This document shows, piece after piece, positions 49,686-62,008 of a stretch of 64,000 bases of DNA (position 1 is its first letter; each line of letters opens with the position of its first letter). The notes beneath the pieces are model-generated. The model ran no database searches, was not told the origin of the DNA, and saw nothing but the letters and a program-made list of their open reading frames with translations. The stretch comes from Legionella feeleii. Lineage in GTDB: Bacteria > Pseudomonadota > Gammaproteobacteria > Legionellales > Legionellaceae. The translations under genes were made by a program, and so were the position numbers. The DNA lies in contig NZ_LNYB01000028.1 in NCBI RefSeq assembly GCF_001467625.1, forward strand, positions 1 through 64,000, written 5' to 3'.

Positions 49686-49714
49686 TTGCTGATAACCCCT
49701 GCTTGTGGTATAAA
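49686..49714 (+). promoter_or_regulatory. Promoter of the rpsB operon
   Basis: TTGCTG at 49686-49691, a 17-base spacer and TATAAA at 49709-49714. The predicted start is about 95 bases before the rpsB ATG, giving the leader with a long stem. Confidence 0.65.
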
Positions 49715-49747
49715 TATGGCGCTTTTAACGACACACACGTTTCGTCA

Positions 49748-49781
49748 CATACGGTTGGGTCCCACAAAAGGGTACCGTATG
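49748..49781 (+). ncRNA. Structured rpsB leader, possible S2 autoregulatory site
   Basis: CATACGGT at 49748-49755 pairs perfectly with ACCGTATG at 49774-49781, with an 18-base loop containing TTGGGTCCC. In E. coli, S2 represses its own mRNA through the leader. This stem is in a suitable place, but binding has not been shown. Confidence 0.5.
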
Positions 49782-49815
49782 GGGGGCGTGGAGGCATAAC
49801 CCTGGAGATTTATTA

Positions 49816-59783: not shown

Positions 59784-60471
59784 TAAATCGACGATAGATT
59801 CGCAAGAAATTGCCAAATTTGCTCAGCATGCTGCACGCTGGTGGGATAAAGATGGGCCGTTAAAAACGTTACATGATATAAATCCTGCACGCCTTGAATT
59901 CATAAATAACTATTGTGAGCTCAAACAAAGTACAATCCTTGATGTTGGTTGTGGTGGCGGTATTTTATGTGAAGGGATGGCTGTACAGGGTGCTAAAGTA
60001 ACGGGCCTGGATGTTGAAGTAGAGGCAATCGAAGCTGCTAAAGCGCATGCCAAAGAAAGCAAATTGGTCATTGATTATATTTGTTGTCCTATCGAAGACT
60101 ATGAGAGCCCAATGTTTGATGTGGTGACCTGCATGGAAATGCTGGAGCATGTGCAGGAGCCACAGTTAGTGATTGAGCATTGTGCTCGCTTGCTAAAGCC
60201 AGGGGGCTATCTTTTTTTATCTACCATCAACAGAACATTTAAAGCGTATACCACAGTGATTTTGGCAGCAGAATATTTATTAGGGTTATTGCCTAAGCAG
60301 ACACATGATTTTGATAAATTTATTAAACCTAGCGAAATCGTTGCCATGATAAGAACAGCCGGTCTTGAATTTATTGGTATGAGTGGCTTGTCGTATAATC
60401 CATTAAGCCGCATAGCAGGATTAAAAGATTCAGTTGATGTTAACTATTTAGTATCTTGCTTCAAGCCTTGA
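59776..60471 (+). CDS. ubiG: Ubiquinone biosynthesis O-methyltransferase UbiG
   Basis: UbiG (231 aa) performs both O-methylations of ubiquinone synthesis. Motif I ILDVGCGGGILCEGMA (near 53-68) binds S-adenosylmethionine. Further marks are FAQHAARWWDKDGPLKTLHDINPARLEFI at the N-terminus, MEMLEHVQEP and PKQTHDFDKFIKPSEI. It follows the UDG-fold gene with overlap. Its end overlaps the proQ-like gene (60444) by 28 bases in the convergent direction. Confidence 0.96.
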   Translation: MNSKSTIDSQEIAKFAQHAARWWDKDGPLKTLHDINPARLEFINNYCELKQSTILDVGCGGGILCEGMAVQGAKVTGLDVEVEAIEAAKAHAKESKLVIDYICCPIEDYESPMFDVVTCMEMLEHVQEPQLVIEHCARLLKPGGYLFLSTINRTFKAYTTVILAAEYLLGLLPKQTHDFDKFIKPSEIVAMIRTAGLEFIGMSGLSYNPLSRIAGLKDSVDVNYLVSCFKP

Positions 60472-60827
60472 GCTTTTTTATCCACGTAACGCTGTTGGTA
60501 ACGTTGGTGGGCATATTTAGCTTGTTCCTCTGTAACGACATCTACTTCATTACCAAATAAGTCGACACGGGCTGTGTTGGCTTTTTGGCAGTTTAAGTAA
60601 GCAGGGGATGAACTGTAATAGCTAAGCGCTTCGCGTAAGGCTTTCTTACTGAAAGTGGGTGTATCCAAACGTTCGTAAAAATCGATAATGTCATCGAAGA
60701 TACCAATTTGCAGTGGTTTGACTTGATTTCCCTTTTTAAAAAAAGCATTGGGGAAATGTTCTATTAACCAATCAATGATTTGCAATTTATCTTTTTTAAC
60801 GCTTTCGTTTTGCCTATTCATTCTCAC
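60444..60827 (-). CDS. Minimal ProQ/FinO-family RNA chaperone
   Basis: A 127-residue protein that consists almost only of a ProQ/FinO domain: IIDWLIEHFPNAFFKKGNQVKPLQIGIFDDII (20-50), then SKKALREALSYYSSSPAYLNCQKANTARVDLFG (60-90). The C-terminal helical EEQAKYAHQRYQQRYVDKK may extend RNA contacts. ProQ-like proteins bind structured RNA and 3' ends; Legionella RocC acts in competence. Whether this is its paralogue is uncertain. It lies next to a probable small RNA gene. Confidence 0.87.
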   Translation of the reverse strand: MRMNRQNESVKKDKLQIIDWLIEHFPNAFFKKGNQVKPLQIGIFDDIIDFYERLDTPTFSKKALREALSYYSSSPAYLNCQKANTARVDLFGNEVDVVTEEQAKYAHQRYQQRYVDKKAQGLKQDTK

Positions 60828-61152
60828 ATACTCTGAAGCAACTAAATCCCGATTAAACTACCATAAATAGTAGCTTTAGCAAGGCAGTTTCGCGATTTAA
60901 TCAGTAAAAATTCAATTTTTTGCTACTAAAGAGTAAAATAATTAGGCATAAAGAGGATTCAATTTGAGACACTTTAAGTTATCTTTTATCACTAGTCTGT
61001 CTTGCATTACTCCAAGATATTTCTCAATCTACAGCAAGAAAACGGTACATCACCAGGTGAAATTATCTCCATTTAAATGTAACTTTATGAATAGTAAAGA
61101 TTTAATTTTATTTAGGAAAGAAAATGCTTCTTTTGAATGATAATTGGTTGTC
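60828..61152. other. Intergenic stretch between the proQ-like gene and the Rsm-like RNA
   Basis: No gene was seen. It is AT-rich. AAAGAA, 5 bases and TTCTTT form an inverted repeat at 61117-61133, 20-36 bases upstream of the RNA promoter, which weakly resembles the LetA-type palindrome upstream of rsmY/rsmZ. Confidence 0.4.
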
Positions 61153-61181
61153 TTGCACAACAGTAAGCTAATTGCTAAATT
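61153..61181 (+). promoter_or_regulatory. Promoter of the Rsm-like RNA
   Basis: TTGCAC at 61153-61158, a 17-base spacer and TAAATT at 61176-61181. The predicted start is near 61188, upstream of the first GGA motif. Confidence 0.6.
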
Positions 61182-61187
61182 TTAAGC

Positions 61188-61328
61188 ATGACTTCAACGG
61201 ATTTGGGGTCGTCCAAAAGGAATTGTAATCATAGGGAAATGATGATCAGGGATGATTTTTTTTAGGACAGGATGTCCTGAAAGGATGATTGCAAAAAGCC
61301 AGGGCCTAAAAACCCTGGCTTTGTTATT
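61188..61328 (+). ncRNA. Probable RsmY/RsmZ-type small RNA sequestering CsrA
   Basis: About 140 bases between a promoter and a Rho-independent terminator carry seven GGA motifs. Four sit in hairpin loops: CAA-CGGAT-TTG (61195-61205), ATCAT-AGGGAA-ATGAT (61228-61243), ATCA-GGGA-TGAT (61245-61256) and AGGACA-GGA-TGTCCT (61264-61278). This is the signature of RNAs that titrate CsrA/RsmA. In Legionella such RNAs, driven by LetA, release the transmissive-phase program, including motility. No ORF overlaps in a coding sense. Which of rsmY, rsmZ or a further copy it is cannot be told. Confidence 0.78.
61295..61322. terminator. Bidirectional terminator after the Rsm-like RNA
   Basis: AAAGCCAGGG and CCCTGGCTTT form a 10-pair stem with an 8-base loop, then GTTATTTA. 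It also follows the stop of the minus-strand transpeptidase gene at 61328. Confidence 0.85.
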
Positions 61329-62008
61329 TATACTGATGCGTAACCTGAATGAGAGAGGTAGTAGCTATCAGGATAGTAAGCAAACACTACTGAACCACCT
61401 TTAATTGTGTTAATCACTGGTTTCGCCAGGGTTTTAGCAATAGAAGGGCATCCCCAGCTTCGTCCTGCTCGTCCGGCCTTCTTAATGAAATCCGGTTCTA
61501 CATACCAGGCACCATGGATTACCACACGTCTGTTAAATGCATTGTCATTGAAACCTCTTTCCAGTCCCTGGAGGTTTAATGAATAACCCTTGGAGCCCAT
61601 GTAAGTATTACGGGTAACATAGGTACCTAGGCTGGTTTCTTTACTGGAAACTTTGTTAGAAAAATGGTGTGGGGTATCCATTCCTGAATTCTTACCATGT
61701 GCTACGTAAGTATTGTATAAAAGTCGTTCTTTGTTGAGATCAAAAATCCACATCCGTTGTTTGTTAGAAGGTAAAGAATAATCAATAACAGTTAAAACTG
61801 GCTTTTTAACTGCGCCTTTGTCGGCGGCTTTTTTATAAGCAGTCAGAGCAAGCTTAAGAACTCTTCTGTTAAGTTTAGGGGCTTTTTGACTTAGATGTTG
61901 AACGTGTTTGTTGACATCAAAGCCAGTTTTTATTCCATGGGGTGTAGTCCCCGTAGTAGCGGTAGTGGAAAAGAAAGCCGCAGAAAGTATGCTTAATATA
62001 GTACTCAT
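61328..62008 (-). CDS. YkuD_2-family murein L,D-transpeptidase
   Basis: This 226-residue exported protein begins with a hydrophobic leader (MSTILSILSAAFFSTTATTG) that resembles a signal peptide. The catalytic region is VVIHGAWYVEP (His) and RAGRSWGCPSIA (Ser-Trp-Gly-Cys-Pro), the Cys being the nucleophile of the pfam YkuD_2 group. It differs from the SHGCIRV form at 21962. It may remodel peptidoglycan in the envelope. Monocistronic; the terminator at 61295 follows it. Confidence 0.85.
   Translation of the reverse strand: MSTILSILSAAFFSTTATTGTTPHGIKTGFDVNKHVQHLSQKAPKLNRRVLKLALTAYKKAADKGAVKKPVLTVIDYSLPSNKQRMWIFDLNKERLLYNTYVAHGKNSGMDTPHHFSNKVSSKETSLGTYVTRNTYMGSKGYSLNLQGLERGFNDNAFNRRVVIHGAWYVEPDFIKKAGRAGRSWGCPSIAKTLAKPVINTIKGGSVVFAYYPDSYYLSHSGYASV

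What the first reader, a model, noticed from the sequence alone, without database searches (positions are those of the whole stretch)
61188..61328. New Rsm-type RNA with four GGA-in-loop hairpins
Seven GGA motifs in about 100 bases, four in hairpin loops, between a sigma-70 promoter and a Rho-independent terminator in a gap with no ORF. This matches CsrA-titrating RNAs (RsmY/RsmZ/CsrB class). It lies beside a ProQ-like gene, so two RNA-control elements are adjacent. A weak LetA-like inverted repeat lies upstream.
Basis: partly seen in the sequence, partly recalled or inferred. Interest (0 to 1): 0.85.

Follow-up and report, generated by a model that had tools for sequence, protein, structure and literature searches.

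The report
Legionella RsmZ, a known CsrA-sponge RNA
This is most likely the Legionella small RNA RsmZ, already studied in L. pneumophila, which helps switch the cell's growth programme by soaking up the protein CsrA; the same genome also seems to carry six copies of another RNA of this kind that could not be matched to a described one.

Summary
In detail: 61188-61328 has seven GGA motifs, four hairpins supported by comparison, a strong terminator and no ORF of 60 aa or more. The RNA is not new; it is almost certainly the ortholog of L. pneumophila RsmZ. It lies tail-to-tail with a 226-aa YkuD_2 gene, and a paper places rsmZ directly beside the 225-aa YkuD_2 gene lpg1697. Model R1 finds it in 107 of 143 Legionellaceae genomes, five of them weakly. 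The hairpins show compensatory changes. A LetA-type box lies upstream in 59 of 63 relatives, mostly at about 175 or 185 bases. CsrA, a UvrY/GacA-family regulator and an RsmY candidate are in the genome. Likely function: a LetA/RpoS-activated CsrA sponge, by homology; nothing here measures expression or binding. Rfam has no match over threshold. In passing: this genome has six full copies, plus a diverged one, of an Rsm-like RNA with a GacA-type box and an outer stem, four of the six beside a LuxR-type gene. That expansion is more interesting than the RNA itself.

The parts
61013..61026 (.). LetA-type box CAAGATATTTCTCA, about 170 bases upstream of the RNA
   Evidence: 2 mismatches to TNAGAAATTTCTNA (consensus recalled, not from a call); a box with at most 3 mismatches at -190..-150 in 59 of 63 relatives, against 4 of 63 in a control stretch at -350..-310
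61153..61156 (+). -35-type element TTGC
   Evidence: TTGC-N16/17-GCTA in 57 of 63 relatives, spacer 17 in 55; alignment
61174..61177 (+). -10-type element GCTA (in TTGCTAAATTT)
61188..61330 (+). RsmZ RNA; start inferred from the promoter, end from the terminator
   Evidence: model R1 137.2 bits (this sequence is in the model); DNA match in 23 of 56 genomes, own included; 107 of 143 family genomes
61190..61210 (+). hairpin 1, GGA in loop (61199-61201)
   Evidence: 3 of 4 pairs with a change on both sides, 92.5% of cells paired; GGA in 63 of 63
61219..61221 (+). GGA between hairpins 1 and 2 (AAAAGGAA)
   Evidence: GGA in this stretch in 63 of 63
61228..61243 (+). hairpin 2, GGA in loop (61235-61237)
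   Evidence: 4 of 5 pairs with a change on both sides; GGA in 63 of 63; not formed in the single-sequence minimum-energy fold
61245..61256 (+). hairpin 3, GGGA loop (GGA 61250-61252)
   Evidence: weakest helix: 1 of 4 pairs with a change on both sides, 87.3% of cells paired; GGA in 61 of 63
61264..61278 (+). hairpin 4, GGA loop (61270-61272)
   Evidence: 5 of 5 pairs with a change on both sides; GGA in only 41 of 63
61283..61285 (+). GGA between hairpin 4 and the terminator
   Evidence: GGA in this stretch in 54 of 63
61295..61322 (.). intrinsic terminator; read on the other strand it also has a short T run, so it may end the YkuD_2 mRNA as well (inference)
   Evidence: helix 98.9% paired; sequence
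61328..62008 (-). YkuD_2 (L,D-transpeptidase) gene, tail-to-tail with the RNA; counterpart of lpg1697
   Evidence: PF13645, 234.5 bits; PMC10117105 passages
60444..60827 (-). minimal ProQ gene, divergent from the RNA
   Evidence: PF04352, 105.4 bits; PDB 6s10_A E 9.9e-64

Best explanation
The feature is the Legionella small RNA RsmZ. When nutrients run out, the LetA response regulator (binding the box near 61020) and probably RpoS switch on its promoter. The RNA, about 140 nt, ends at the terminator at 61295-61322. Its GGA motifs, in hairpin loops and between them, bind CsrA. This takes CsrA off its mRNA targets and lets the transmissive programme start. Shown here: the RNA element, its conservation and pairing, its box and promoter, its place beside a counterpart of lpg1697, and the presence of CsrA, a UvrY/GacA-family regulator and an RsmY candidate in the same genome. 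Inferred from work on L. pneumophila: transcription, activation by LetA and RpoS, CsrA binding, effect on the life cycle.
For: Place: the RNA abuts the stop codon of a 226-aa YkuD_2 gene. [quoted passage not shown] pneumophila'. In the genome whose ProQ is 97% identical to PDB 6s10 (unnamed, G128) the R1 match lies 299 bases from that gene, divergent. Conservation: nhmmer match within about 300 bases of the YkuD_2 gene in 56 of 80 named loci, among them L. norrlandica and L. longbeachae; R1 in 107 of 143 family genomes and in 22 of 22 of the window's genus, one of them (G010) weakly. Structure: 95.2% of cells paired, covariation score 0.255 against 0.147 in shuffles and at most 0.076 when slid. 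Box and promoter. Partners: four CsrA-family matches over the cut-off, one strong; UvrY/SirA/GacA-family regulator, 280.8 bits at a cut-off of 280; RsmY candidate with a DNA match in 22 of 22 genus genomes. Literature, passages: LetA activates RsmX/Y/Z (PMC5928044), loss of RpoS lowers RsmY/Z (PMC5928044), excess RsmZ competes with mRNAs for CsrA in gel shifts (PMC5338858).
Against: No expression or binding data for this species. The published L. pneumophila RsmZ letters were not at hand (Sahr 2009 is not held), so orthology rests on place, homology across the family and class features. No named L. pneumophila locus was among the 80 kept of 94. Rfam gives no match over a gathering score; the best is rsmX RF02144 at 24.2 bits against 56. 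Hairpin 4's GGA is kept in only 41 of 63, and four of 63 lack the box. 24 of the 80 named loci have no match; I did not examine them one by one, but they include contig ends and one record of another phylum (Rudanella). 36 of 143 family genomes have no match and five of the 107 score below 40 bits. R1 was built from sequences of many of these genomes.
Confidence: 0.95

Rival explanations
1. A new Rsm RNA, separate from RsmX, RsmY and RsmZ.
For: No Rfam match above threshold.
Against: It sits where rsmZ is reported to sit in L. pneumophila, the same RNA is found across the family, and a separate locus in this genome fits RsmY.
Confidence: 0.03
2. RsmZ by descent, but with a further main role here, for example as a partner of the neighbouring ProQ or as a convergent-transcription brake on the YkuD_2 gene.
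For: ProQ lies within the 1.5-kb flanks in 20 of 23 loci; a review passage says Lpp1663 prefers 3' poly(U) tails (PMC9977716); the RNA's terminator abuts the YkuD_2 stop codon in the window.
Against: The parts kept are the GGA motifs, the box and the promoter. In 3 of 23 loci ProQ is not within 1.5 kb. In L. pneumophila rsmZ levels were similar with and without lpg1697 (PMC10117105 passage), which speaks only to one direction of influence.
Confidence: 0.04
3. Not an RNA regulator: a chance GGA cluster beside the terminator of the YkuD_2 gene.
For: GGA counts this high occur in about 1% of shuffles of the same bases (108 of 10,000).
Against: At least one pair with a change on both sides in each of the five helices, conserved promoter and box.
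Confidence: 0.01

Closest known systems
RsmZ of Legionella pneumophila (beside lpg1697)
   Same: Same neighbour gene, same class features, LetA-type box, partner proteins present
   Different: Nothing found that sets it apart; the published sequence itself was not available to compare
RsmY of Legionella pneumophila
   Same: As reported: LetA/RpoS-dependent RNA that antagonises CsrA (PMC5928044 passages)
   Different: A separate locus; the RsmY candidate of this genome lies at contig C80:330009-330159
Rfam rsmX (RF02144)
   Same: A full-length weak alignment, with GGA hairpins and terminator in the same order
   Different: 24.2 bits against a gathering score of 56; not a member by Rfam's rule
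CsrB/CsrC and RsmY/RsmZ of other gammaproteobacteria
   Same: What it works like: an RNA with many GGA sites that sequesters CsrA/RsmA (general knowledge)
   Different: No match at any gathering score

Membership tests
Legionella RsmZ | Location directly beside the YkuD_2 gene lpg1697 (counterpart) | tested here: met
   PMC10117105 passages. The counterpart is judged by family, length and place, not by alignment with Lpg1697 itself
Legionella RsmZ | Homologous RNA in the same place across the genus | tested here: met
   R1 in 22 of 22 genus genomes (one weak) and 107 of 143 family genomes
Legionella RsmZ | Alignment with the published L. pneumophila RsmZ sequence | not tested
   Sequence not at hand (paper not held)
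Legionella RsmZ | LetA box upstream | tested here: met
   61013-61026, 2 mismatches; box in 59 of 63 relatives. Consensus recalled; not found in print
Legionella RsmZ | Transcript induced through LetA and RpoS | not testable with these tools
   Reported for L. pneumophila (PMC5928044 passages)
Csr/Rsm sponge RNAs (as a class) | Several GGA motifs in conserved hairpin loops | tested here: met
Csr/Rsm sponge RNAs (as a class) | CsrA protein and a UvrY/GacA-type regulator in the genome | tested here: met
   (the regulator only just over its cut-off)
Csr/Rsm sponge RNAs (as a class) | Binds CsrA | not testable with these tools
   RsmZ competes in CsrA gel shifts in L. pneumophila (PMC5338858 passages)
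Rfam RF02144 rsmX | Score at or above the gathering score | tested here: not met
   24.2 bits against 56
Rfam RsmY, RsmZ, CsrB, CsrC models | Score at or above the gathering score | tested here: not met
   No such match. None is listed to E 10, but there only the best of overlapping matches of one clan is kept, so weaker clan relatives of rsmX would be hidden

The most novel reading that the evidence does not exclude
The window's RsmZ belongs to an unusually large set of CsrA sponges in one cell: RsmZ, RsmY and six full copies of a further Rsm-like RNA (GacA-type box; about six GGA motifs, two of them in hairpin loops, inside a 10-11-bp stem), spread partly together with LuxR-type genes. This clade would then have raised the dose of CsrA sponges by gene copying, as a paper reports for rsmX in a Pseudomonas (PMC7911923, start of abstract in the listing).
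Probability: 0.55. Interest if true: 0.5.

Novelty: already known. Interest (0 to 1): 0.22.

Why it matters
RsmZ itself is known and central to the switch between growth and spread in Legionella. This work adds an alignment of 63 relatives with compensatory changes and a conserved box and promoter, and shows that Rfam 15 does not recognise the RNA over threshold. The six-copy Rsm-like RNA makes a testable question of how and why a lineage multiplies its CsrA sponges.

Tried and rejected
Rfam at gathering scores gave only t44 and a tRNA in the window; at loose scores a weak rsmX match and what look like chance matches.

A LetA box inside the promoter region (61164-61178) was considered on reading; it is not kept in the alignment, while the box at 61013-61026 is. 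Searching the whole genome for the box pattern with one mismatch allowed gives no enrichment over the reversed control (28 against 30 per strand), so the box counts only with its position.

A second copy of RsmZ in this genome was sought with model R1: apart from the RNA itself, only its own terminator on the other strand and three weak matches. One weak match (C85) turned out to be a copy of the Rsm-like repeat; the two others (L128, L130) looked like a gene end and coding sequence on sight and were dropped.

The first fold of the Rsm-like copies cut off the 5' half of the outer stem and was replaced. The L180 item was the wrong strand for the RsmY candidate; on the right strand it folds no better than shuffles (z -1.09), which counts against a stable structure there or means that its ends were badly chosen.

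No solved structure matched the YkuD_2 profile. The 20-copy ncRNA family of PMC3048289 (passages) was considered as the same thing as the Rsm-like repeat; I could not compare letters.

For the alignment of 63 I dropped 16 of the 79 sequences: 14 second copies of the same genomes (L003, L004, L006, L008, L009, L011, L013, L016, L017, L018, L020-L023), L067 (same RNA as L069) and L040. L016 and L040 are the same genome, which carries an insert, so that genome is left out. Counts of 77 include those second copies and are not used.

Print on several rsmX copies in Legionella: one narrow phrase search found nothing, and the listings show no title on it; that is weak evidence of absence.

I lowered the novel case from 0.6 to 0.55 for that.

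Full report
What is there. The window comes from a genome of the Legionella family (named relatives; best named match by identity L. tunisiensis, 96% in the YkuD_2 protein; records of the window's own genome may be left out there). Between a ProQ gene (60444-60827, minus strand) and a YkuD_2 L,D-transpeptidase gene (61328-62008, minus strand) lies a plus-strand RNA element. It has seven GGA motifs, folds with z -4.84 and ends in a ten-pair terminator that abuts the stop codon of the YkuD_2 gene.

Conservation. A DNA search found it in 23 of 56 genomes, own genome included. Within the 1.5-kb flanks of the 23 best loci YkuD_2 is found in 22, the start of putA in 22 and ProQ in 20; a 24th locus, a weak second match in one genome, has none of these genes. 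A profile found the RNA within about 300 bases of the YkuD_2 gene in 56 of 80 named loci (80 were kept of 94); in the other 24 the covariance model gave nothing better than E 0.44. Model R1 finds it in 107 of 143 family genomes at E 0.001, five of these below 40 bits, and in 22 of 22 of the window's genus, one of them weakly (G010, 31.5 bits). The model was trained on sequences of many of these genomes, so this is partly circular; one search was not.

Structure. On 63 sequences (16 of 79 dropped, see Tried and rejected) five helices hold: 95.2% of cells pair, 16 of 27 pairs have a change on both sides, and the covariation score is 0.255 against 0.147 (sd 0.005) in shuffles and at most 0.076 when the partners are slid. 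The structure was partly derived from this alignment, so the slid control leans in its favour. Helix 3 is the weakest. GGA is present in or at the loop of hairpin 1 in 63 of 63, in the linker in 63, in hairpin 2 in 63, in hairpin 3 in 61, in hairpin 4 in 41 and near the 3' end in 54.

Control region. A box with at most three mismatches to TNAGAAATTTCTNA (consensus recalled) lies at -190..-150 in 59 of 63 relatives, mostly about 175 or 185 bases upstream; a control stretch gives 4 of 63. Four relatives lack it (L058, L059, L063, L078). In the window it is CAAGATATTTCTCA at 61013-61026. TTGC-N16/17-GCTA is present in 57 of 63. The C before TA of the -10 element recalls RpoS promoters (recalled), which fits the reported RpoS dependence of RsmY/Z (PMC5928044 passage).

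Identity. PMC10117105 (passages seen) describes lpg1697 as encoding a 225-aa YkuD_2 protein, its gene directly adjacent to rsmZ. The window's 226-aa YkuD_2 protein stands in the same relation to this RNA. The neighbouring ProQ matches PDB 6s10_A at E 9.9e-64, which I recall to be Lpp1663 of L. pneumophila; a review passage cites that protein's solution structure without the entry code (PMC9977716). In the genome whose ProQ is 97% identical to it, the RNA lies 299 bases away in divergent orientation. RsmY and RsmZ are reported as conserved in L. longbeachae (PMC2824747 passage), and L. longbeachae has the RNA here (L095). I conclude that this is RsmZ.

Mechanism. The genome holds four CsrA-family matches, one strong at 91.6 bits and three at 27.5 to 36.1 with a cut-off of 27, and a UvrY/SirA/GacA-family response regulator just over its cut-off. 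Papers on L. pneumophila (passages) report that LetA switches on RsmX/Y/Z and that they sequester CsrA. The step from anatomy to function is by homology.

What came up beside it. First, an RsmY candidate at C80:330009-330159 (minus strand), with a LetA-type box just upstream and a GGA in its terminator loop. DNA matches exist in 22 of 22 genus genomes at E 0.01. In 6 of the 7 genomes where the match lies on a contig of 2.9 Mb or more it is within 17 kb of a contig end, which fits RsmY being numbered lppnc0001 (PMC8828724 passage). Its predicted fold is not better than chance (z -1.09).

Second, a repeat of about 190 bases with a GacA-type palindrome TGTAAG-N6-CTTACA (consensus recalled; exact in five of the six own copies, one letter off in L168) and, about 74 bases on, an RNA-like unit: three hairpins, two with GGA in the loop, inside a 10-11-bp stem, with five to seven GGA motifs in all. 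Six full copies occur here, 82-100% identical to the query (model R2 97-117 bits, the copies being in the model) and a seventh, diverged one (44.7 bits, C86). In all 17 copies folded the outer stem forms; the inner hairpins differ in at least L167, L172, L174, L177 and L178. The six own copies have z from -4.35 to -5.16. Covariation is thin: 3 of 25 pairs have a change on both sides, as the copies are much alike. Four of the six own copies (L164, L166, L167, L168; in L166 only part of the gene) stand tail-to-tail with a LuxR-type gene; of six convergent ORFs scanned, three from this genome and two from others have a GerE domain and that at L165 has no family. R2 matches occur in 13 of 143 family genomes at E 0.0001 under stricter filters, ten in this genus and three in one other, and in 11 of 22 genus genomes at E 0.001; several of these are weak (about 34-53 bits). 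Rfam has no match at E 1 for the one copy tested (L166). Against a sponge role: no intrinsic terminator is seen after the unit on reading, and nothing shows that it is transcribed. It may or may not be L. pneumophila RsmX, which a paper says is absent from strain Philadelphia 1 and L. longbeachae (PMC5928044 passage).

Noticed in passing
L163:2483-2574, L164:2566-2657, L165:2543-2634, L166:2407-2499, L167:2460-2553, L168:2917-3007 (own genome); diverged copy G000:C86:9214-9312: Six full copies and one diverged copy of an Rsm-like RNA with a GacA-type box about 74 bases upstream and three hairpins (two with GGA in the loop) inside a 10-11-bp stem; four of six lie tail-to-tail with a LuxR-type gene, one of them partial. 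Found in 13 of 143 family genomes.
   Followed up: partly
L118 980-1240, minus strand (G000:C80:330009-330159): RsmY candidate: LetA-type box, several GGA motifs, terminator with GGA in its loop; DNA match in 22 of 22 genus genomes, no Rfam match to E 1, fold not better than chance.
   Followed up: partly
window 61328-62008: YkuD_2 gene, counterpart of lpg1697, which is reported to be needed for survival in water (PMC10117105 passages); its stop codon abuts the RsmZ terminator, which has T runs on both strands.
   Followed up: partly
window 60444-60827: Minimal ProQ, divergent from rsmZ, within 1.5 kb in 20 of 23 loci; whether it binds RsmZ is unknown.
   Followed up: partly
G000:C86:760-773 and 961-974: Two LetA-like boxes, one the reverse complement of the other, 201 bases apart; not explained.
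   Followed up: no
L003 (1431-2107): In the L. tunisiensis-like contig the YkuD_2 match falls into two pieces in different frames.
   Followed up: no
window 49714-49800: t44 RNA (RF00127, 64.9 bits), ending shortly before an ATG; looks like an ordinary leader element.
   Followed up: no
own genome, L122-L125: Four CsrA-family matches, one strong and three weak.
   Followed up: no
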